This document shows, piece after piece, positions 324 through 9,120 of a stretch of DNA of 9,294 nt. Position numbers and translations under genes: made by a program. The notes under the pieces were generated by a model. It worked only from the letters and a program-made list of their open reading frames with translations, had not been told where the DNA came from and did no database searches. The DNA lies in the NCBI GenBank assembly GCA_013203065.1, contig JABMQV010000466.1:1-9294 (forward strand), read 5' to 3'. Origin of the DNA: Desulfobacteraceae bacterium (lineage in GTDB: Bacteria; Desulfobacterota; DSM-4660; Desulfatiglandales; Desulfatiglandaceae). Position 1 is the stretch's first letter, and each line of letters starts with the position of its first letter.

Positions 324-803
324 ATGAAGAGGATGTCTATTCTAGGGGCGTTCATGATTCTGATGGCCTCGGCCACCTGGGTGATGGCAGGACCTTTCGG
401 TCCGGGCTGCGGGGGTACCTATGGCGGGGGGATGGGGGCGCAGGCCCTCTCATTCCTGAACCTGACGGCGGATCAGGCCGAAAAGATCCGATCCCTGAGG
501 GAAACCTTTATGAGGGGGATAAAACCGATCCGTCTCCAGATGTTTAACACGAGGGCGGAACTGAGATTGCTTTGGATGCAGACAAACCCTGATTCGGAAA
601 AGATCAAGGCCAAACAAAAGGAAATGGGAGCGATTCAGGGGCAGATCCGCGACAGGATCACTGACCTCCGACTTGCCATCAGAAAAGCGCTGACCTCTGA
701 CCAGGTCTCGCAGCTCCTGGCGCGGGGTCTTTGGAGGGGCAGAGGCCCGGGGTGCTGGAGGGGCAGTGGTGACGTTCCGTGTCGGAGCAGAAGGGGGTTT
801 TAG
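324..803 (+). CDS. Spy/CpxP/ZraP-like periplasmic protein
   Basis: A 159-residue exported protein. Residues 1-22 form a signal peptide (MKRM basic start, hydrophobic core, VMA cleavage site before GP). A Gly/Pro-rich linker with one Cys (C29) follows, then a long charged helical region with two LTxxQ motifs (LTADQ at 47-51, LTSDQ at 123-127). These motifs are typical of the Spy/CpxP and ZraP/CnrX families, which act as periplasmic chaperones or metal-responsive envelope-stress proteins. The C-terminus is Gly/Arg-rich with two more Cys (C144, C153), which could bind metal (inference). The ribosome site GGAGGT at 311-316 is well placed for ATG 324. Its stop codon overlaps the stop of the convergent HesA/ThiF gene. 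No two-component partner is visible, and its link to the AOR locus is probably only positional. Confidence 0.75.
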   Translation: MKRMSILGAFMILMASATWVMAGPFGPGCGGTYGGGMGAQALSFLNLTADQAEKIRSLRETFMRGIKPIRLQMFNTRAELRLLWMQTNPDSEKIKAKQKEMGAIQGQIRDRITDLRLAIRKALTSDQVSQLLARGLWRGRGPGCWRGSGDVPCRSRRGF

Positions 804-1666
804 TCCTCCGCTTCGGCTTCGAACGAGAATTCATTCATCTGAGCGGTCTCCATATCCACGTGGATCATGGCGTTTCGAATTGATCTTCCGCGTTCAAGGA
901 TGATTTTTACGACCTCCATTGCCTGCAGGGTTGCGATGAGGGAAGGGGTCAATGTGGGGACGCCCAGGACCGATTCGGGGCTTTTTGACTTATCTACAAC
1001 TGCCCCTTCGTTTCCGTAGAGGTTTTTGAGGCCCGAATCATTGGGGAATATCGTCATCAGTTGCCCCTCAAAACCTGCCAATGCCCCGTGGACCATGGGA
1101 ATGCCAAGCCCCTTGCTCACATCTTCCAGCAACAAGCGATCCGGCACATTGTCCAGGGCATCAACGATCACATCCGATCCTCCCAGTATCTCAGGGGCAT
1201 TGGATCGATCCAATGCCAGATGATGGGATATGACATCAACGGCCGGGTTTATAGAAGCCACAGCGGCCACCGCAACCTCTGATTTGGGTTTACCTAAAGC
1301 CTCCTGGGTGCACAGGGCCTGTCTGTTGAGATTGCTCTCGTCAAAAAGATCTTTGTCAACCACCACAAGGCGCCCGATCCCGATTCTCGCCAGGAGCAAA
1401 ATGAGGTTACCCCCCAGTCCGCCTGCGCCCACCACCGACACCTGGGATCGGGCAAGTTTTAATTGCTCCCCCAGCGAAATGATTTCTCTGTTGCGGATAT
1501 AGCGGTGGGGAGAGATCCCCAGGGAGAGGGCTTCGATATAGACCTCATGCACGCGGCACCCGAAGTTTTCGGCAATTTTCAAGGCCTGACGGTCATCCAG
1601 AACCATTATCTCACGCCCGGCAGGGTCCTTTATCTTTCTGGAATTCTTGTTCAGTAAGTCACGCAT
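800..1666 (-). CDS. HesA/MoeB/ThiF-family E1-like adenylyltransferase lacking the usual cysteines
   Basis: E1-like protein of 288 residues from ATG 1666; a TTG start at 1684 would add six. Numbering from the TTG form: the nucleotide-binding glycine loop GAGGLGG is at 86-92, the acidic D110 ends the second strand, NLNRQ (118-122) supplies the Arg/Gln that contact ATP, K134 follows, and DALDN (175-179) ends the core. A helical domain of about 80 residues precedes the fold. Enzymes of this fold adenylate the C-terminal Gly-Gly of MoaD/ThiS-like proteins. Unusually, the only cysteines are C43 and C125: the two CxxC zinc pairs and the catalytic Cys of MoeB/ThiF are missing, and where CxxC is expected it reads GLKNLYGN. 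From memory this matches a cysteine-poor subfamily found beside AOR genes. The ATG start is preferred because the upstream MoaD-like frame ends at TGA 1661-1659, overlapping it, and GGGGGA lies about 10 nt upstream. Its 3' end overlaps the convergent Spy-like gene. Confidence 0.85.
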   Translation of the reverse strand: MRDLLNKNSRKIKDPAGREIMVLDDRQALKIAENFGCRVHEVYIEALSLGISPHRYIRNREIISLGEQLKLARSQVSVVGAGGLGGNLILLLARIGIGRLVVVDKDLFDESNLNRQALCTQEALGKPKSEVAVAAVASINPAVDVISHHLALDRSNAPEILGGSDVIVDALDNVPDRLLLEDVSKGLGIPMVHGALAGFEGQLMTIFPNDSGLKNLYGNEGAVVDKSKSPESVLGVPTLTPSLIATLQAMEVVKIILERGRSIRNAMIHVDMETAQMNEFSFEAEAED

Positions 1667-2034
1667 AAGAATCTGTTCCCCCAAACCTCAGCCCCCCTCT
1701 ACTTACCCCCCCATTTTTCTCGCGGCGGGCGCGCTCAAGGTTCTCCCTGGCGATACCCAAAAAGACGCGATAGGGCCCCGGGGTCCCTTGGGGAAAAAGG
1801 AGAGCCGGTCTCAGGGAAATACAGCGTCATAGATATTCATGACCCGGCCGTTACAAAAGACGGCCTCGATTTTCTCGGGTGGAATCGAGATTACCTGTGC
1901 TACGGAATAGGCGGAAAGCCCATTATCAGGATGCCCCTTTCCAGGGTATATGGCATGCCCTGTTCATCCATATAGCGCCGGAGAAACCCAAATACGCGGA
2001 TCTCGATAAGGCCCTGTCCCTTGGGAGATACCAA
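1659..2034 (-). pseudogene. Broken MoaD/ThiS-like beta-grasp gene (two frameshifts and one in-frame TGA)
   Basis: The roughly 370 bp between the intact MoaD-like gene and the HesA/ThiF gene are coding-like only if frames are joined. Frame A begins near TTG 2034 and gives IEIRVFGFLRRYMDEQGMPY. Near 1935-1945, in a run of AAAGGGG, the sense moves to frame B, which reads DNGLSAYSVAQVISIPPEK then IEAVFCNGRVMNIYDAVFP. TGA 1813-1811 interrupts it where a glycine is expected ('FPGD'); DRLSFFPKG follows. Near 1780, in GGACCCCGGGG, it moves to frame C: PYRVFLGIARENLERARRE, ending at TGA 1659. Adding one base at each shift restores a continuous protein of about 125 residues. 'VFxNGRV...GDRLSFFP' is the C-terminal half of a MoaD/ThiS-like fold, here with a charged tail instead of a terminal Gly-Gly. 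The homopolymer-rich shift sites could be read errors, but the TGA is a substitution. Confidence 0.7.
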
Positions 2035-2035
2035 T

Positions 2036-2275
2036 TTAGCCCCCTCCCACTGGCGGGAAGAGTCCTACACGTTCGTGTCCTTTCAGGACGAAGTCCATGG
2101 ACTGACTCCTTCCATCTACCATCACAACCTTGATATGATTTGAGGGTATGTTCAATAGCTTGCAGAGTTGGGCCACTGTGACGGGTTTGTTCAGGTCGAG
2201 GTCTATGCCCGTTGACGGGTCATACCCGGGAGGATGCCTACGAAGAGTCGAACTGAGGGGGATTTTTAGCGCCAT
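2036..2275 (-). CDS. MoaD/ThiS-like sulfur-carrier protein (first copy)
   Basis: A protein of 79 residues from ATG 2275; an in-frame TTG at 2290 would add five. The fold pattern fits the ubiquitin-like beta-grasp carriers: an opening strand (MALKIPLSSTLRR), a helix after 'PVTVAQLCKLLNIP', a strand with 'VVMVDGRS', then a closing 'HERVGLFPPVGGG' with the terminal Gly-Gly that E1-like enzymes adenylate. MoaD carries sulfur for molybdopterin synthesis and ThiS for thiazole synthesis. The choice here rests on context: a HesA/ThiF gene lies downstream on the same strand and an AOR gene starts divergently 790 bp away, which favours pterin cofactor work. It is first in the minus-strand operon, and the broken second carrier gene begins directly after its stop. 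The ribosome site is weak (TTGGAAAA just before ATG). Confidence 0.75.
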   Translation of the reverse strand: MALKIPLSSTLRRHPPGYDPSTGIDLDLNKPVTVAQLCKLLNIPSNHIKVVMVDGRSQSMDFVLKGHERVGLFPPVGGG

Positions 2276-2622
2276 TTTTCCAATACTCAACTACCAATAT
2301 GAAACAAAAGGGAATCATTTTCTCAATTAGCCTATCAGTAAAGGCCTGTCCGTGTCAATATCCTTATGTCAAACTTGATCTAGAACCGTGAATCAAGATA
2401 TTCCCCTTGATGTTGCCCTTCACTTGTGTCAGTATAATTTTAGGCTTTCAGGTAGCACAATTTCTAAAGACAGAGATTTCATCTTCTTCCCCTCTTGTAT
2501 TGAAGGCCTTTTCCATCTGGGGAGAGCGGGGTAATGGCAACATAATGAACAGGTAAGTTATAATTAGTAATCACGTTTATGAATAAAAAGATTGAGCATT
2601 TTGGGAATTCAATTATGCCCTG

Positions 2623-2640
2623 ATCGTTCGTTAGAACGAT
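2623..2640. promoter_or_regulatory. Perfect inverted repeat ATCGTTC-N4-GAACGAT
   Basis: ATCGTTC, four bases (GTTA), then GAACGAT is an 18-bp dyad in AT-rich intergenic DNA. It lies about 265 bp upstream of the possible sigma-54 -24 element and 425 bp before the AOR start. It could be an activator or repressor site, or a small RNA hairpin. No T run follows directly, so it is not a terminator by itself. Confidence 0.4.
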
Positions 2641-2658
2641 TGGAGGTCTCCAAAAACA

Positions 2659-2694
2659 GGTGGAGTTATTTCAAAGTCTCTCACCGGCTTTTTT
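2659..2694 (+). terminator. Weak terminator-like hairpin with T run
   Basis: GGTGGAG (2659-2665) can pair imperfectly with CTCTCACC (2678-2685), with one bulge and a 12-nt loop; after three bases comes TTTTTT at 2689-2694. There is no + strand gene just upstream. It could end a leader transcript, act in attenuation, or be chance in AT-rich DNA. Confidence 0.22.
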
Positions 2695-2905
2695 ATGTCA
2701 AAAATAATATTGCAAGGTTCGACCTTTTTTTAACCTTATCATAATCATAGAAAATGTAAATTTATCAGAATGAGAAAGTAATTCTTAAATTGAGAGATTT
2801 TAGGGTGAATCCTTGTCTGAAATGCCTTTTGGAGGGGAAGATCCAGTACCTGTTTTCACTTTGCTTTCAATAGGTTAAGATTAATCGTTAAATGCAGTTC
2901 ATTTT

Positions 2906-2920
2906 TGGCATGCATATTGT
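2906..2920 (+). promoter_or_regulatory. Possible sigma-54 (-24/-12) promoter for AOR
   Basis: TGGCATG, four bases, then TTGT resembles the sigma-54 consensus TGGCACG-N4-TTGC with correct spacing. The -24 GG is intact, but the -12 GC reads GT, which is a serious mismatch. A start near 2931 would leave a leader of about 135 nt before the AOR ATG. No sigma-70 promoter of clearly better quality was seen by eye. Confidence 0.28.
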
Positions 2921-2965
2921 GTAGAGGAGGAGTGTTTTCTTGAAGAGGAGGAGTTTAGATCATGA

Positions 2966-2983
2966 AAGATCAGGAGTGATCTT
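2966..2983. promoter_or_regulatory. Perfect inverted repeat AAGATCA-GGAG-TGATCTT in the AOR leader
   Basis: Seven-base perfect arms separated by GGAG, located 82 bp before the AOR start codon and downstream of the possible sigma-54 promoter. As DNA it is a plausible operator; as RNA it is a 7-bp hairpin presenting a GGAG loop. It overlaps a tiny frame (ATG 2962, MKDQE then TGA) preceded by AGGAGGAG, so a leader-peptide arrangement is conceivable but unproven. Confidence 0.35.
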
Positions 2984-3064
2984 GATGAAATCTTAACAAG
3001 GTCACGGAATGGCAAAGATTTTCGGGAATAAAGTTAACCTTAATCTGGACAAGGAGGTGCAATT

Positions 3065-4936
3065 ATGTTTGCTTTTACGGGAAAGATCTTGAGGGTGAAT
3101 TTGTCAGAGGGCAGGGTTTCGGTGGAAGATATTCCGGAAGATTGGATGAAGAAGTATTTAGGTGGCATAGGTGTAGGTACCAAGTACCTTTATGATGAGG
3201 TACCAAAAGGGATTGATCCGTTGGGCCCGGAAAATAAGTTGTTATTCATGACCGGACCTTTGACCGGTACAATTTCACCGAGTGCCGGAAGGTATGATGT
3301 GATAGCAAAGTCTCCCCTGACTGGCATATGGGGACATGCAAACTCAGGAGGTCAGTGGGCAAACCAATGTAAGAGAGCCGGCTTTGATGGTGTTATCTTT
3401 GAGGGAATATCGCCAAAGCCCGTTTATCTTAAGATTGAGAACGGGGAGGCGGAACTTAGAGATGCGAGCCATCTCTGGGGGAAGCTTACGCCTGAAACCA
3501 CCGACCGTATCATTGAAGAATGTGGGAAAGGTTTCAGGGTGGCCTGTATTGGTCCCGCGGGTGAAAAAATGGTGAAATACGCATGCGTGATTAACGAAAA
3601 GAGCAGGGCTGCCGGAAGAACCGGAATGGGAGCTGTTATGGGCTCAAAGAAGCTCAAGGCGATAGCCGCGTCCGGTAAAGATGCCCCGAAAATCGCTAAA
3701 GAGGCAGAGTTTAAGGAGGTATCCAAAAGACAATATGATTTGTTGAATGAGTCCATGTTGAAGGTCGGTTTTGAGTCCTTTGGCACCAATATGCTTATAG
3801 ATATAGTCAATGCCAAGGGGGGATTGCCAACTCGAAATTTTCAAACAGGTGTATTCGATCAAATTGAAGAAATAGGTGCTCAGGCGTTGTCGGATAAGGT
3901 TCTTGTATCACAGGTTAACTGTTTTGCCTGTCCTATCTCCTGTGGGCGCAAGACGGAGATCAAGAAAGGCCCGTGGAAAGGCGAAAAAGGGGAAGGCCCG
4001 GAGTATGAATCGAATGCCCTGTTAGGATCCAACTGTGGTATTGGCGATATGGAAGCAGTTACCAAGGCCAACTTCCTGTGTAATGATTATGGACTCGACA
4101 CCATATCCACCGGAGGTACGATCGGTTTTGCCATGGAATGCTATGAAAAGGGGATCCTGACCAATGAACAGACCGGCGGCCTTGAGATCAAGTTTGGAGA
4201 TGCTAATATGCTGGTGGAGCTTACGGAAAAGATAGGAAAGAGAGAAGGCGTTGGTGACTTATTGGCCGAAGGGACAAGGATAATGGCCGAAAAACTGGGG
4301 CAAGGATCTATAAATTTTGCCATGCAGGTTAAGGGTCTCGAGCTCCCTGCCTATGATCCGCGAGCCGCCAAGATATGCGGTCTGGGGTATGCGACGGCGA
4401 TTCGTGGCGGGGACCACATGGCAGGTTACGTGGAGGGGCCCGCATTAATAGATACCCCTTTTCTGGTGATAGATGATAGCAAAATCGAGGACGCATTTGA
4501 GGTGAACCCGGCAGAGGCCAAAGTCCTTGTAGATCAAGAGAATGCACTCACGTTTTTTGATCTGGCCGGGGCTTGTAAGTTTATGGGTTTCCTCCTGAAG
4601 GCCGAGGAATGGGTAGAGCTGGTAGCCACCTCGACAGGCTGGGATTTTGACGTAAATGATTTTAGAAAAACCGGCGAACGGATCTATAACCTTGTAAGGG
4701 CATTCAATATCAGAGAAGGAATAACCCGTGCTGATGATTGTCTCCCCGCGCGTTTTACTGAGGAGCCACTACCGGAAGGGCCCGCTAAAGGTATGGTGCT
4801 CTCCCGGGACAAATTAGACTTGTACCTGGACGCTTATTACGATCTTCGGGGGTGGGACAAGGAAACCGGGAAGCCAACCCGTGAAAAACTTACTGAACTG
4901 CGCCTGGAAGATCTGATTCCGGATGTATGGGGATAA
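3065..4936 (+). CDS. aor: Tungsten-type aldehyde ferredoxin oxidoreductase
   Basis: A 623-residue, full-length AOR-family enzyme (Pyrococcus AOR is about 605). These cytoplasmic enzymes hold a tungsten (or molybdenum) bis-pterin plus one 4Fe-4S cluster, and oxidise aldehydes to carboxylic acids with ferredoxin, or the reverse. The N-terminal domain opens with the family pattern GKILRVNLSEG and KYLGGIGVGTKYLYDE. Cluster ligands are C286-x2-C289-x3-C293 plus the distant C504 in DLAGAC. Pterin-site motifs are NDYGLD (340-345) and DLAGAC (499-504). E313 (in PEYE) and H451 (in GGDHM) correspond to the active-site Glu and His of Pyrococcus AOR. The ribosome site AAGGAGGTG (3051-3059) fixes ATG 3065. 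The ligase gene follows after 109 bp. The sequence is of classical AOR type rather than the benzoyl-CoA reductase BamB type. The metal and substrate are inferred. Confidence 0.95.
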   Translation: MFAFTGKILRVNLSEGRVSVEDIPEDWMKKYLGGIGVGTKYLYDEVPKGIDPLGPENKLLFMTGPLTGTISPSAGRYDVIAKSPLTGIWGHANSGGQWANQCKRAGFDGVIFEGISPKPVYLKIENGEAELRDASHLWGKLTPETTDRIIEECGKGFRVACIGPAGEKMVKYACVINEKSRAAGRTGMGAVMGSKKLKAIAASGKDAPKIAKEAEFKEVSKRQYDLLNESMLKVGFESFGTNMLIDIVNAKGGLPTRNFQTGVFDQIEEIGAQALSDKVLVSQVNCFACPISCGRKTEIKKGPWKGEKGEGPEYESNALLGSNCGIGDMEAVTKANFLCNDYGLDTISTGGTIGFAMECYEKGILTNEQTGGLEIKFGDANMLVELTEKIGKREGVGDLLAEGTRIMAEKLGQGSINFAMQVKGLELPAYDPRAAKICGLGYATAIRGGDHMAGYVEGPALIDTPFLVIDDSKIEDAFEVNPAEAKVLVDQENALTFFDLAGACKFMGFLLKAEEWVELVATSTGWDFDVNDFRKTGERIYNLVRAFNIREGITRADDCLPARFTEEPLPEGPAKGMVLSRDKLDLYLDAYYDLRGWDKETGKPTREKLTELRLEDLIPDVWG

Positions 4937-4971
4937 ATAAAGGCCTCATATATCTACTAAGGCACAATCTC

Positions 4972-5012
4972 CCTCTGCTGGTTCAGGATACACAACATAG
5001 AACCAGCAGAGG
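4972..5012 (+). promoter_or_regulatory. Perfect 13-bp hairpin between AOR and ligase genes
   Basis: CCTCTGCTGGTTC (4972-4984), a 15-nt loop, then GAACCAGCAGAGG (5000-5012): thirteen uninterrupted pairs. It sits 36 bp after the AOR stop and 33 bp before the ligase start. No T run follows (ATAAATGTT), so it is a poor intrinsic terminator. It is better read as an mRNA-stabilising or processing structure giving different levels of AOR and ligase, a partial terminator, or a protein-binding dyad. Confidence 0.7.
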
Positions 5013-5045
5013 ATAAATGTTAGATAGAATAAGGAAGGAGTGAAT

Positions 5046-6731
5046 ATGTCTTACGCGGATAAACCCTGGTTGAAGAGTTACTTCTTGGGCCCTTATAAAC
5101 TCAAGAAGAGTCTTGCCCCCTATCCGAAAGTTCCGCTATCCGCAGTCCTGGATGATGCGGCTGAAAAATTCCCTGGCCAAACGGCTGTCCTTTTCGAGGA
5201 GAGAAAACTCAGCTATAAGGATTTAAAAATCCAGGCAGATAAATTAGCGGCAGCACTGGCCGGGTTTGGTGTTAAGAGGGGAGATCGGGTGCAGATATTC
5301 CTGCCCAACTGCACGGAGTTTGTCATAAGCGATTGGGCTATCCTGAAGGCAGGTGCCTGTGTGGTCCCCACCAGTATCATGCGGACCGATAAAGGACTTC
5401 TCCATGAATCCGGGAGCTCAAAAAGTAGGGTCACTATTTGCAGGGAAGAACACCTGGAGCGTGTATTGGGAATAAAGGACAAGTGCGATATTGAACATAT
5501 TATCGTGACCTCCACCGATGGCTACGATGTTAAAGGGTTATCCACAAAGCTTCCAAAAGGCGCCTATGAATTCAGGAAGGTACTAGAGGATAATGAACCG
5601 ACACCTCCCGCGGTTAAAATCGACCCCACGGAGGATCTGGCCGAACTCGCTTTTACGGGGGGTTCCACTGGTGTTCCCAAGGGAGTTATGATTACCCATT
5701 TTAATCGATATACCAATTTCATGCAGAGTATTCCCTGGATGCTGACACCATTGTCCCGGGGAATTATTGGTAAGTCCTCTTTTTTTATCACCACCCCCCT
5801 GTTTCACGCATACGGACATTTTATACAACAATTAGCTGCTTACTGGGCCCTTCGGATTATCTTGGTGCCTGATCCGAGAGATAATGAGGGGATCATACAA
5901 ACCATGAAGAAATACCGTCCTCTTCTGGTTCCCACGGTTCCAACCCAGCTCATGCGGATGGCCAAGGGTAAGGTGGGAAGGATGACCTGCATGCCTATGT
6001 CTTGCGCGGCCCCACTTCCTGAAGAGATTTCCGAGGCAATCAAAAAGGAGATCGGCAATCCGGTCTCAGAAGCTTACGGTTTAACCGAGACGGGACCTAT
6101 GACTCATATCAACGTTTCGGCCTTTTCCAAGATTACCGGTTTCATGAAGCAGGAAAAGCGCGGACTGGGTATTCCTGTACCTGACACGGAGTGTAAGCTG
6201 GTAGACCCTGAAACGGGCAAAGAAGTTCCCGTTGGTGAAGTTGGGGAAATCGTTTCCAGGGGTCCGCAGGTAATGAAAGGATTCTGGCCCGAGCTGGGCT
6301 CCGGATTAGAGGATGGCTGGCTTCACACCGGGGATCTCGCCCATATGGATGAAGATGGCTATTTTTTCATCCGTGACAGGATCAAGGATATGATTAATAT
6401 CTCCGGGTTGAAGGTCTATTCCACGTCTGTTGATGAGGCATTATTCAAGCATCCGGGTGTGCTCATGGCCATGGGTATCGGAGTTCCCGATCCAAACATT
6501 CCAGGCAGTGAAAGGGTAATGGCCGTAGTGAGGCTGAGGGAGGATTACAAAGGCAAGGTAACGGTAGAAGATATTATTAATACCTGCAAGGAGCATCTCC
6601 CGCCTTATGCAGTTCCGAAATACGTTGAATTCAAGGATGATCTGCCTCTGACAGTAACAGAGAAGTTGTTTAAAAAGGAAGTGAGAGATGAGTTGGTTGA
6701 GAAGATGAAAGCAAGAGGAGAGCTAAAATAG
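5046..6731 (+). CDS. AMP-forming acyl/aryl-CoA ligase (ANL superfamily)
   Basis: A 561-residue adenylate-forming enzyme that activates a carboxylic acid with ATP, then transfers it to CoA. ATG 5046 is the start: an in-frame GTG at 5040 lies inside the ribosome site AAGGAAGGAG (5031-5040), so it is unlikely to be used. Core motifs are in order: P-loop FTGGSTGVPKG (203-213), YGLTETGP (344-351), HTGD (427-430) with the ribose-binding Asp, hinge region DRIKD (444-448), GLKVYSTSVDE instead of the more common 'GxKVxPxEVE', and the C-terminal catalytic lysine K540 in VTEKLFKK. No signal peptide or membrane segment is seen. It resembles the branch with dihydroxybenzoate-AMP ligases and fatty or aromatic acid CoA ligases; substrate cannot be set from motifs. 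Next to AOR, the natural reading is activation of the acid that AOR makes, or supply of acid for reduction. A terminator follows after 84 bp. Confidence 0.92.
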   Translation: MSYADKPWLKSYFLGPYKLKKSLAPYPKVPLSAVLDDAAEKFPGQTAVLFEERKLSYKDLKIQADKLAAALAGFGVKRGDRVQIFLPNCTEFVISDWAILKAGACVVPTSIMRTDKGLLHESGSSKSRVTICREEHLERVLGIKDKCDIEHIIVTSTDGYDVKGLSTKLPKGAYEFRKVLEDNEPTPPAVKIDPTEDLAELAFTGGSTGVPKGVMITHFNRYTNFMQSIPWMLTPLSRGIIGKSSFFITTPLFHAYGHFIQQLAAYWALRIILVPDPRDNEGIIQTMKKYRPLLVPTVPTQLMRMAKGKVGRMTCMPMSCAAPLPEEISEAIKKEIGNPVSEAYGLTETGPMTHINVSAFSKITGFMKQEKRGLGIPVPDTECKLVDPETGKEVPVGEVGEIVSRGPQVMKGFWPELGSGLEDGWLHTGDLAHMDEDGYFFIRDRIKDMINISGLKVYSTSVDEALFKHPGVLMAMGIGVPDPNIPGSERVMAVVRLREDYKGKVTVEDIINTCKEHLPPYAVPKYVEFKDDLPLTVTEKLFKKEVRDELVEKMKARGELK

Positions 6732-6815
6732 AGGGCAAAGGAAGAGGAGGTTGTGCCTGATCTGGAACTCCAAGGAGTGTGACTTTACATCTTAAAGGAT
6801 CATTTTTTCTTCTCG

Positions 6816-6840
6816 CTGGGGCCGCTCATGGCCCAGTTTT
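6816..6840 (+). terminator. Rho-independent terminator after the ligase gene
   Basis: CTGGGGCC (6816-6823), a 6-nt loop, then GGCCCAG (6830-6836) form a GC-rich stem with one bulged G, followed at once by TTTTATATT. It lies 84 bp after the ligase stop, so AOR and ligase form one unit and the Fe-S gene probably has its own promoter or depends on read-through. Confidence 0.65.
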
Positions 6841-6900
6841 ATATTGAAGCCTTCGGATAGTAGGTTGTGTGGCGCCTGGAAGAACGGACATGTCGCGTGT

Positions 6901-6961
6901 GGAAGGTCGTAGGGCAGGAAGGCTGTTGTGAAGTCGGAAGTGGGAAGGCGGAAATCGGAAG
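6901..6961. repeat. Purine-rich stretch with repeated GGAAG units
   Basis: Five GGAAG units occur in about 60 bp (at 6901, 6917, 6936, 6943 and 6957), two of them inside TCGGAAG repeats (6934-6940 and 6955-6961). It lies between the terminator and the Fe-S gene start. It resembles degenerate intergenic repeat DNA, but one copy in one window cannot show that it is a dispersed family. Confidence 0.3.
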
Positions 6962-6991
6962 AGAGAATAATGAAAAAGGAAAGTGTGCTGA

Positions 6992-8461
6992 ATGAGTGCC
7001 GAAGATAGACTCAGGTACGAGATTAATAAATGCCGTAATTGCGAGGCATGCAAGACTCTGCTGAATTCTTCATGCGTCCTATTCCCGGAAATGTTCAGGC
7101 TGGTGGATGAAGAGAGGGAAACGGGAGAGAAGATCAGCACCGATGGACTGAGAAAGCTTGTGAACCTGTGTAATTTTTGTGCAGCCTGCCCCTGCTTGGA
7201 CATCCGTGTGGCCATAATGGAGGCAAAAACCGAGTATATGGACAGATATGGCCTGGGGTTTAAGATTCGGCTCATAGAGGACGTTGAGCGCATAGGAAAA
7301 CTGGGTGGCGCGCTTCCCCAACTCACCAATGTCCTGTGCAAAAACAGGGTTGCCAGAAGCTTGATGGAAAAGGGCGTGGGGATTCACATGGATCGTAAAA
7401 TCCCCAGTTTTCCGAAAGAGAACTTTCCAATATGGATCAAAAGACACAAGACGAATATCGAAGCACGGGGAAGAGATAAGAAAAAAGTGGCTTATTTTGT
7501 TGGGTGTAGCGCCAAGTACTTCTTTCCCGAAGTGCCGAAGGCAGTGGTTGAAGTCTTTGAGAGAAACGGCATTGAGGTCTATTATCCGGAACAGCAATGC
7601 TGTGGCATGCCTTCCCTTCTCGAGGGAGACAGGAAATTAACACTGGAATTTGCCCGGTTCCAGGTGCCCGGTTTAGCGGAAGCCGTGGAAGAAGGGTATG
7701 ATATCGTCTGTTCCTGTCCCACGTGTGGATATATGCTGAAGAAAATCTTAAAAGTGGGAGCCTACTATTCCGCAGAATATCGAGACTTGGTAAAATCGAG
7801 TGATGGTTTTGTGAAAATTCCAATAGGTGAGAGCCCATTGTCCTCTACATACGGGGGTTTCGTACATTTCCCTGTAGATCTATTTAAAGGAATGTTGAGG
7901 GACGAAGGTTACTTCTCTTCCATAAGCCCCAAAAAACGGATAATGGTGGCGGAAAACAGTTATGATGTGGGTGAATATTTAAGAATGTTGCATGAACGGG
8001 GTGAACTTGATACGAGGTTTGGGCCTGTCTCTGTAAGGGCGACCTATTACCCCCCATGCCACTTAAGGGAGCAAAGAATAGGAAGAGAGATATTGGTATC
8101 GATACCATCTACACCTTTTCATTTTTCCTTCCGCCTGAAGGAGCAAAGAATAGGAAGGCCGTATCAAGATTTATTGGGTTTGATTCCTGGATTGTCTTTA
8201 GATACAATCAGCGGAGACTATTGCTGCGGCAATGCAGGCATTATGGGCTTTAAGCAGGAGTTCCATCAGTTGTCCATTAAGATCGCAAGCAGGTTGATAG
8301 CAAAAATAAAGAGCATGAACCCAGAAGTGCTTGTAACAGATTGCCTGAGTTGCAGGATACAGTTCAATCAACTCACCCTGTACAAGGTCCTTCATCCCAT
8401 TCAGATTATCGGGGAATCGTACAGCAATTATCAAGAGCAGTCTGAAAGGAAGGCAGTCTGA
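6992..8461 (+). CDS. HdrD/GlpC-like Fe-S oxidoreductase with two CCG domains
   Basis: A 489-residue soluble electron-transfer protein. An N-terminal ferredoxin-like part has C14-x2-C17-x2-C20-x7-C28 and C60-x2-C63-x2-C66-x-C68, likely holding two clusters. The first CCG domain has C172, C203-C204-G205 and C240/C242-x2-C245; the second has C356, C411-C412-G413 and C451-x2-C454. CCG domains bind the unusual 4Fe-4S cluster of heterodisulfide reductase HdrB/HdrD and are found in succinate dehydrogenase SdhE, GlpC and LutA relatives. No membrane helix is visible, so it probably works in the cytoplasm with partners. Next to AOR and the ligase it likely takes or gives the electrons (inference). The second CCG domain carries a 24-residue in-frame insertion near residues 359-388; without it the C356-to-CCG spacing drops from 54 to 30 residues, close to the family norm. 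ATG 6992 follows AAGGAAAG; a 12-residue frame from ATG 6970 overlaps the start. Confidence 0.88.
   Translation: MSAEDRLRYEINKCRNCEACKTLLNSSCVLFPEMFRLVDEERETGEKISTDGLRKLVNLCNFCAACPCLDIRVAIMEAKTEYMDRYGLGFKIRLIEDVERIGKLGGALPQLTNVLCKNRVARSLMEKGVGIHMDRKIPSFPKENFPIWIKRHKTNIEARGRDKKKVAYFVGCSAKYFFPEVPKAVVEVFERNGIEVYYPEQQCCGMPSLLEGDRKLTLEFARFQVPGLAEAVEEGYDIVCSCPTCGYMLKKILKVGAYYSAEYRDLVKSSDGFVKIPIGESPLSSTYGGFVHFPVDLFKGMLRDEGYFSSISPKKRIMVAENSYDVGEYLRMLHERGELDTRFGPVSVRATYYPPCHLREQRIGREILVSIPSTPFHFSFRLKEQRIGRPYQDLLGLIPGLSLDTISGDYCCGNAGIMGFKQEFHQLSIKIASRLIAKIKSMNPEVLVTDCLSCRIQFNQLTLYKVLHPIQIIGESYSNYQEQSERKAV
8068..8157. repeat. 72-bp in-frame insertion flanked by an 18-bp direct repeat, with a 14-bp palindrome
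   Basis: The 18-mer GGAGCAAAGAATAGGAAG occurs at 8068-8085 and, exactly, at 8140-8157, a 72-bp offset (24 codons). Between the copies lie 54 bp unlike the neighbouring sequence, including the perfect palindrome TGGTATCGATACCA (8094-8107). The left flank encodes YYPPCHLREQRIG and the right flank encodes IGRPYQDLLGLIPG; joining them at one repeat copy gives a normal CCG-domain sequence. This is the footprint of an inserted small element with a long target duplication, or of a templated insertion. The protein frame is kept throughout. Confidence 0.75.
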
Positions 8462-8464
8462 AAG
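8437..8464. repeat. 16-bp tandem duplication at the stop codon of the Fe-S gene
   Basis: The unit GCAGTCTGAAAGGAAG (8437-8452) is followed by a partial second copy GCAGTCTGAAAG (8453-8464). The period of 16 shifts the frame, and the second copy supplies the TGA stop (8459-8461). Removing one unit would extend the frame by about 20 codons to a TAG near 8525. The duplication may therefore have reset the C-terminus, beyond the conserved domains. Confidence 0.5.
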
Positions 8465-8877
8465 CGGACTCAGAGACTCCGCCCCAATCAGAGTATTTGC
8501 CCGCCCTGGGGCGACGTGTTTGGAATAGGGCCTTGCCGCTGAAATATTTCAGGACTTGATTCCGATGAACCGGGGCTTCATAAATCAGGCGTGGAATAGG
8601 GAGCAATGGACATTGAATTGATGTCTTTCGAGGATTGGCACTTGATAAATATTTCAATTTAGGTTTAAAATGGTCATAGCCACCGAACACTTATTGACGA
8701 GAGTAATCGGATCATCAAGCACCTGCGGTTCTCCATCACTGACCGTTGCAACCTGAGATGCGGGTCCTGTATGCCCGAAGAGTGAATCCGTTTTGTACCG
8801 CACAGTGAAATACTTTTCTTTGTTTATAAAAGGGTCATTACCGGTCAAAATATTGTGAGTCTAAAAGGAGGTGAGTC
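8462..8877. other. Intergenic stretch between Fe-S gene and third MoaD-like gene
   Basis: 416 bp without an intact gene. It contains the moaA relic (about 8690-8815), a perfect 14-bp palindrome CTGAAATATTTCAG (8539-8552) and two copies of TGGAATAGGG (8521-8530 and 8592-8601). A frame of 18 codons starts at ATG 8607 but shows nothing recognisable. No clear terminator or promoter was seen. Confidence 0.6.
8690..8815 (+). pseudogene. moaA: Relic of the 5' end of moaA (GTP 3',8-cyclase), with internal TGA
   Basis: From 8690 the + frame reads LIDESNRIIKHLRFSITDR, then CNLRCGSC, then MPEE, stop TGA (8783-8785), and in the same frame IRFVPHSEIL. This is the start of MoaA, whose usual form is 'LIDxxxRxIxxLRxSxTDRCNxRCxYCMPEEGIxFVPHxEIL'. 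The CxxxCxxC motif binds the radical-SAM 4Fe-4S cluster; here the usual Tyr before the third Cys is Ser. The TGA stands where GGA (Gly) is expected. Homology ends near 8815, about 42 of some 330 codons. No start codon lies in frame (TAA at 8666-8668 and no ATG after it). The rest of the gene is absent: the next gene's ribosome site begins about 50 bp on. It is a dead fragment. Its position just before a MoaD-like gene suggests an ancestral moaA-moaD pair. Confidence 0.85.
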
Positions 8878-9120
8878 ATGATCATAGAAGCAAAAATATT
8901 CTCCAGCCTCCGTCATTATTTACCAAATTCGCCCAACCATCTGGATGGAGACAAATGGGATATACCGGAAGGAGCAACCGTGGCGCATGCCCTGAAAATG
9001 CTAAACATTACTGAAAAAGAGACCAAGATCCTCCTTATCAATGGCCGTCGTGCTGATATGGAGAGTGTCCTGAACAAAGGGGATGTTTTTCATGTTTTTC
9101 CCCTAATGGCTGGGGGCTAA
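8878..9120 (+). CDS. MoaD/ThiS-like sulfur-carrier protein (third locus)
   Basis: An 80-residue beta-grasp protein. An opening strand 'IIEAKIFSSLRHYLP' is followed by a helix after 'EGATVAHALKMLNI', a strand 'TKILLINGRRADM', and the closing 'LNKGDVFHVFPLMAGG' with the terminal Gly-Gly needed for adenylation and sulfur loading. 'F..LR.YLP' near the start and 'NGRRA....L.DGD.V.VFP...GG' at the end are common to MoaD/ThiS-like proteins. The ribosome site AAGGAGGTGA ends 5 nt before ATG 8878 and is essentially perfect, so this copy is probably well expressed. It differs clearly from the minus-strand copy, so it is not a recent duplicate. Its partner E1 could be the HesA/ThiF protein at 800-1666. 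MoaD rather than ThiS is favoured by the AOR and moaA-relic context. Confidence 0.82.
   Translation: MIIEAKIFSSLRHYLPNSPNHLDGDKWDIPEGATVAHALKMLNITEKETKILLINGRRADMESVLNKGDVFHVFPLMAGG

What the first reader, a model, noticed from the sequence alone, without database searches (positions are those of the whole stretch)
8068..8157. Small palindrome-bearing element inserted in frame in a conserved CCG iron-sulfur domain
An exact 18-bp direct repeat flanks 54 bp of foreign-looking sequence, including a perfect 14-bp palindrome, and the total 72 bp keeps the frame. The protein gains 24 residues between C356 and the CCG triplet of the second domain, where spacing is normally about 30-38. In-frame palindromic insertions that proteins tolerate are known from Rickettsia palindromic elements; I know of no such case in this setting. 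The 18-bp duplication is long for a standard transposase target duplication.
Basis: partly seen in the sequence, partly recalled or inferred. Interest (0 to 1): 0.72.

Follow-up and report, generated by a model that had tools for sequence, protein, structure and literature searches.

The report
Inherited loop insertion, not mobile element
A 72-letter stretch inside an iron-sulfur protein gene, which looked like a tiny mobile DNA element, is most likely an old inherited extra loop shared by related bacteria and lost in some of them, so it is mostly ordinary gene evolution.

Summary
The sequence facts are right: an exact 18-bp repeat (8068-8085, 8140-8157), 54 bp between, a 14-bp palindrome, 72 bp in frame, 54 residues instead of 30-31 between C356 and the CC pair. 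The repeat exceeds chance (0 of 500 simulations); a palindrome this long does not (226 of 500). The mobile-element reading fails. The 24 residues sit at the same site in 11 of 142 retrieved homologues (window included) and in a Desulfobacteraceae MAG, L001, with a shared core V-x-x-P-S. L001 breaks the palindrome, and no convincing second copy was found in its genome or in 84 others of its order. Best account: one old in-frame insertion, in the window's lineage containing a 27-32-nt copy of the sequence upstream, translated as a loop in a turn between two helices and later lost: exactly (P0006), within a recombined tract (P0009), or shortened to 8 residues (P0025). The core's origin and any function stay open.

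The parts
6992..8461 (+). Gene of a 489-aa protein with an N-terminal cysteine-rich part and two CCG (noncubane iron-sulfur) domains, HdrB/EtfD-like
   Evidence: ORF; Pfam CCG PF02754, two stretches; PDB sequence relatives HdrB; fold relatives LutA (integrative model), EtfD, HdrB
8087..8158 (+). The 72-nt insert, residues 366-389 (the breakpoint is ambiguous by the length of the repeat)
   Evidence: alignment with 119 other homologues; spacing count in 142
8087..8131 (+). Core of the insert, residues 366-380 EILVSIPSTPFHFSF, origin unknown
   Evidence: V4, P7, S8 invariant in 10 distinct inserts; near/far homology 0 of 5000 column shuffles
8059..8085 (+). First copy of the direct repeat, over the codons HLREQRIGR after C356 (exact part 8068-8085)
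8131..8157 (+). Second copy of the direct repeat, over the codons RLKEQRIGR (exact part 8140-8157)
8094..8107 (.). 14-bp perfect palindrome, most likely a chance feature of the codons for V-S-I-P
   Evidence: one mismatch in L001; 226 of 500 simulations have one this long
8057..8059 (+). Codon of C356, first ligand of the second CCG domain
   Evidence: invariant in the 87 rows (P0084, not among them, has Phe here)
8222..8227 (+). Codons of C411-C412, the CC pair of the second CCG domain
   Evidence: invariant in the 87 rows

Best explanation
An old, single-locus, in-frame insertion of 24 residues, inherited in a group of Desulfobacteraceae-like bacteria and translated as a flexible loop in a short turn between two helices of the second CCG domain. 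In the window's lineage its last 9-11 residues look like a diverged copy of the sequence just upstream (HLREQRIGR; the preceding Pro-Cys appears as Pro-Ser in 5 of 6 near carriers), so it looks like a local duplication with about 45 nt of filler (inferred). Because the turn tolerates it, the insert drifts faster than the rest of the protein and has been lost several times: once exactly, as recombination between the repeats or with an insert-free allele would do; once inside a recombined tract; once by shortening. Shown: shared site and length, conserved core, no second copy found in L001's genome, exact absence in a close relative, a localized difference tract, a low-confidence loop in the model. 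Inferred: the mutational event, the mechanisms of loss, translation of the insert, near-neutrality.
For: Same site and length in 11 of 142 retrieved proteins, 8 residues in 1, none in 130 (one search corrected). L001 carries it at the DNA level, 64/72 nt. Ten distinct inserts share V4, P7, S8, and the cores of the two carrier groups match beyond all of 5000 column shuffles. One clade holding both groups with their insert-free members is not rejected, p-AU 0.46; carriers alone (12 rows, P0025 included) as one clade are rejected, p-AU 4e-5, so loss or exchange is needed (at least 5 changes). L001 and P0006 are 96.9% identical (443/457) with 24 gap positions, and P0006 matches P0003 at 57 of 57 compared positions in residues 330-410. 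P0008 and P0009 differ at 17 of 97 positions in residues 305-425 but at 6 of 359 elsewhere, Fisher p 4e-8, the range chosen after seeing the differences. Models: residues 362-386 pLDDT under 50 with the insert; without it (P0006), helices 356-361 and 366-371 with a 4-residue turn, block means 91-97.
Against: The origin of the core is not explained: it matches the upstream segment no better than shuffles and nothing else in the window. All 11 full inserts are exactly 24 residues, more uniform than a free loop would need. In the far group the second repeat copy is not recognisable (0-2 of 9 identical), so the original event may not have been a duplication. The two carrier groups are not joined in the best tree (unresolved base), so transfer between them is possible. 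Insert dS (0.12) is below that of the neighbouring 26-codon flanks (0.64 and 0.39), which leaves open recent exchange or DNA-level constraint; the sites are few. A weak intergenic-looking match in a genome of L001's family (L048) is not fully explained.
Confidence: 0.78

Rival explanations
1. A small mobile palindromic element (as in Rickettsia) inserted in frame and made an 18-bp target duplication.
For: Direct repeats flank foreign-looking sequence with a palindrome; presence varies between close relatives. In 85 genomes a 60-nt query gave 3 weak hits besides G001 where E 0.01 predicts about 0.9; one, L048 in a genome of L001's family, shares ATACCATCTACACC exactly and reads IPSTP..FFPS in one frame.
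Against: Shared by relatives down to 67% identity at one site. In L001's genome the 99-nt search finds only itself, next best E 0.4; the 24-aa profile's next best is E 0.005, antisense to an ORF that I recognise from memory as S41-protease-like. A 19-nt core pattern with 2 mismatches gives 4 matches besides G001 against 16 for its reversed control. Palindrome at chance level and not conserved.
Confidence: 0.03
2. The insert spread between the two carrier groups by recombination of a tract, not by descent from their common ancestor.
For: The groups are not joined in the tree; P0008/P0009 suggest that tracts across this site are exchanged.
Against: Near and far carriers are not more alike around the site than near carriers and far non-carriers (0.78 against 0.79, 0.77 against 0.76); far and near inserts share 5-11 of 24 residues; one clade is not rejected.
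Confidence: 0.15
3. The insert is skipped during translation (a bypassed gap between matching codons), so it never reaches the protein.
For: In the window's lineage the possible take-off and landing sites are repeated; between window and L001 the 8 changes fall 2, 3, 3 over the codon positions (my hand count) and dN is about equal to dS.
Against: The frame is open in all 11 carriers; V-x-x-P-S is kept at the amino-acid level; the 99-nt region folds no better than shuffles (z -0.09 in the window, -0.82 in L001), though a 72-nt piece gives z -1.87; in the far group the repeat is gone. Protein databases would miss inserts with stops, so the open frame is partly a selection effect.
Confidence: 0.02
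4. An assembly artefact.
For: The repeat could mislead short-read assembly.
Against: Contigs from different sources carry it (L001), and other contigs lack it (P0009 in 16 contigs, P0007 on a 19-kb contig).
Confidence: 0.01

Closest known systems
Conserved signature indels (clade-specific insertions in conserved proteins)
   Same: An insertion of fixed length and position in a conserved protein, limited to related lineages, in a loop (the kind is recalled; search listing only)
   Different: Here it is absent in several close relatives, so it is not a clean clade marker, and in one group it contains a copy of the flanking sequence
Rickettsia palindromic elements
   Same: In-frame extra sequence inside a protein gene
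   Different: By the review passages read (PMC10969869) those are ~150 bp, in ten families with 44 insertions in unrelated genes of one species; here 72 nt, one gene, no second copy found, no conserved palindrome
HdrB / EtfD-type CCG proteins
   Same: Two CCG domains; sequence relatives HdrB, fold relatives LutA (integrative model), EtfD, HdrB
   Different: 24 extra residues between the first cysteine and the CC pair of the second domain

Membership tests
Rickettsia palindromic element-like mobile element | Many copies in unrelated genes of one genome | tested here: not met
   Only itself found in L001's genome; in 85 genomes of its order 3 weak hits besides G001 where about 0.9 is expected and no excess over the reversed control. 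The window's own genome could not be searched
Rickettsia palindromic element-like mobile element | Conserved palindromic/hairpin structure | tested here: not met
   One mismatch in L001, chance level, no significant fold of the 99-nt region; a 72-nt piece z -1.87
Rickettsia palindromic element-like mobile element | In-frame insertion in a protein gene | tested here: met
Clade-specific conserved indel | Same position and length in related lineages | tested here: met
   24 residues in 11 of 142, one search corrected
Clade-specific conserved indel | Present in all members of one clade | tested here: not met
   P0006, P0007, P0009, P0019, P0015, P0026, P0028, P0036, P0070, P0121 lack it inside the two groups
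CCG-domain iron-sulfur protein | Pfam CCG match and the Cys ligands of both domains | tested here: met
   C172, C203, C204, C242, C356, C411, C412, C451, C454 invariant in 87 rows, C245 at 90% or more

The most novel reading that the evidence does not exclude
The repeat-flanked insert is a reversible in-frame indel: populations keep alleles with and without a 24-residue loop beside the cysteine that holds the second CCG cluster, exchange them by recombination, and can delete the loop exactly through its repeats, so that the loop tunes access of a partner or substrate to the cluster.
Probability: 0.08. Interest if true: 0.5.

Novelty: new member of a known kind. Interest (0 to 1): 0.2.

Why it matters
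Mostly as a correction: a short insert with a palindrome and direct repeats can pass for a mobile element until relatives are aligned. It is also a compact natural case of an in-frame loop next to an iron-sulfur ligand that is kept in some lineages and absent, once exactly, in close relatives, which could be used to study how such loops arise and vanish.

Tried and rejected
Rejected: (1) The whole 72 nt as a tandem copy of the 72 nt upstream. The full insert aligns with its upstream segment in the 6 near carriers (0 of 2000 shuffles each) but through the repeat; in the 5 far carriers 60-1246 of 2000 shuffles do as well. The 15-aa core alone is matched by 166-1877 of 2000 shuffles across the 11 carriers, and the core DNA by 1875 and 1960 of 2000. 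(2) Core copied from elsewhere in the window: best score 20, reached by 169 of 200 shuffles (8041-8170 masked). (3) Dispersed copies: the three weak hits were inspected. L049 lies at the start of an ORF that I recognise from memory as cold-shock-like. L047 (25 nt) and L048 (about 38 nt) lie in stretches with only short open frames. L048 is in G019, a genome of L001's family, and shares ATACCATCTACACC; at E 0.007 in 85 genomes I take it as chance, without proof. (4) Viral contigs: no relative of the protein, no exact match to a 25-nt core pattern. (5) Rfam: one match in the whole window at E 0.31, bits 17 against a cut-off of 70, not at the insert. (6) More insert DNA: order and class searches gave the same 85 genomes; at E 1e-80 four have a relative and only G001's covers the insert. 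Thus the DNA-level tests rest on two sequences, window and L001.

Limits and corrections: only 120 of 1405 homologues were listed, and the two region searches missed some known carriers (one search lacks P0001, P0002, P0023; one search lacks P0051), so the carrier count is a lower bound. The tree labelled P0006 and P0007 as partial carriers through an alignment artefact (3 misplaced residues), corrected. The trees leave out 3 of 56 rows (P0048, P0125, P0126: long branches), and the 56 were themselves chosen from 142. One search's pattern gave 34 for P0001 (it matched PFH) and missed P0029; 54 and no insert follow.

Full report
What is there. The repeat is 27 nt at 85% in the window and 32 nt at 88% in L001. 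A repeat of 18 exact bases within 200 nt occurred in 0 of 500 simulated windows; a perfect palindrome of 14 bp or more occurred in 226 of 500. The window's longest perfect palindrome is elsewhere (1196-1217, 22 bp).

The gene. The 489-aa protein has two CCG stretches. HdrB is its sequence relative in the PDB, and LutA (an integrative model), EtfD and HdrB are its fold relatives. In EtfD the noncubane cluster is held by Cys637, 672, 673, 709 and 712 and by His583 (PMC13083937, passages read); C356, C411, C412, C451, C454 here show the same arrangement (inference from the invariant columns). The neighbours are an aldehyde ferredoxin oxidoreductase, an AMP-binding enzyme and a ThiS/MoaD-like protein; these stretches and the CCG gene align in the same order with L001 at 85-91%.

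Who has the insert. Of the 120 homologues listed out of 1405 found, 11 including the window have 24 extra residues at the same site and P0025 has 8. Two further searches aimed at the insert region listed 53 and 95 proteins and brought the total to 142 without a new carrier: 11 with +24, 1 with +8, 130 with 30-31 residues before CC (corrected as told in Tried and rejected). The lists are capped and the region searches missed some known carriers, so 11 is a lower bound. Of the related loci examined, L001 has the insert; L002-L007 and the loci L035-L037 (29-31 residues) do not; for L034 the script printed no match.

How it varies. The near group (P0001-P0005, P0023) is typified by P0004, QRLVSIPSTPFLFPSHLREQRIGR, the far group (P0008, P0010, P0051, P0060, P0092) by P0010, QNFVLVPSSSFTSPSPVKKATIVN. 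V4, P7 and S8 are invariant in the ten distinct inserts; F11, P14 and S15 nearly so. The core matches between groups beyond all 5000 column shuffles, the tail beyond 4950 of 5000. The insert changes faster than the rest: P0001/P0002 are 88% identical outside and 13/24 inside, P0001/P0008 77% and 6/24. Between window and L001 it is 64/72 nt, dN 0.119, dS 0.124, against dN 0.084 and dS 0.445 for residues 1-365. Judged by the gene's dS this is moderate constraint; judged by its own dS it is none. The numbers are too small to choose.

History. On a tree of 53 proteins without the insert columns the carriers form two groups, each with insert-free members; the label needs 5 changes. Holding both groups with their insert-free members as one clade costs 2.4 log units (p-AU 0.46); holding the carriers alone together costs 348 (p-AU 4e-5). 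So one origin followed by losses is allowed, and some loss or exchange is required. P0006 is 96.9% identical to L001 with 24 gap positions and equals P0003 at 57 of 57 compared positions around the site, though it is a single-contig sequence. P0009 differs from P0008 mainly in residues 331-407 (17 of 97 positions in 305-425 against 6 of 359 elsewhere, p 4e-8, range chosen after the fact), and in residues 330-410 it is closest to the insert-free P0026 and P0028. P0025 keeps 8 of the 24 residues.

Not mobile, as far as could be searched. In L001's genome the 99-nt query finds itself (E 1e-32) and then nothing better than E 0.4; the peptide profile finds itself (E 2e-15) and then E 0.005, antisense to another open frame. 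In 85 genomes of the order a 60-nt query gives 3 further hits at E 0.001-0.008, where about 0.9 would be expected at E 0.01. One of them, L048, in a genome of L001's family, shares 14 exact bases with the core; I read it as chance but cannot prove it. A 19-nt pattern with two mismatches gives 4 further matches against 16 for the reversed control. The window's own genome is not held.

Place in the fold. Without the insert (P0006) the model has helices 356-361 and 366-371 joined by a 4-residue turn at high confidence. With the insert, residues 362-386 fall below pLDDT 50 and the first of these helices is shorter. The insert therefore most likely extends that turn as a flexible loop; low confidence does not prove disorder.

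Conclusion. Most likely an inherited loop insertion at a tolerant site, not a mobile element. Its first step may have been a local duplication with filler; that step is inferred, and the core's source is unknown. Function: most likely none of consequence, with a modest role of the V-x-x-P-S core not excluded. Papers: search listings and passages of PMC10969869 and PMC13083937. I made no search for a published description of this very insert.

Noticed in passing
window 8640-8814; L001 11467-11642 onward: Between the CCG gene and the MoaD-like gene the window has a fragment reading like the start of moaA (DESNRIIKHLRFSITDRCNLRCGSCMPEE, then a stop); L001 has a much longer open frame there, and between the two aligned stretches L001 has 954 nt where the window has 32. 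The name moaA is recalled.
   Followed up: partly
window 1196-1217: A 22-bp perfect palindrome, GGCATTGGATCGATCCAATGCC, inside the ThiF-family gene (800-1684, minus strand), longer than the one in the finding.
   Followed up: no
window 800-9120: Cluster with aldehyde ferredoxin oxidoreductase, AMP-binding enzyme, CCG protein, ThiS/MoaD-like protein and ThiF-family protein, plus a second small protein ending in GGG at 2036-2290 minus (ThiS-like by its ending, recalled).
   Followed up: partly
P0008 and P0009, residues 331-407: Two proteins nearly identical elsewhere differ in a sharp tract around the insert site, pointing to gene conversion among related alleles.
   Followed up: partly
L048 (G019:C192:782-818, minus strand): A stretch with only short open frames, in a genome of L001's family, with a 38-nt partial match to the insert core that reads IPSTP..FFPS in one frame.
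   Followed up: partly
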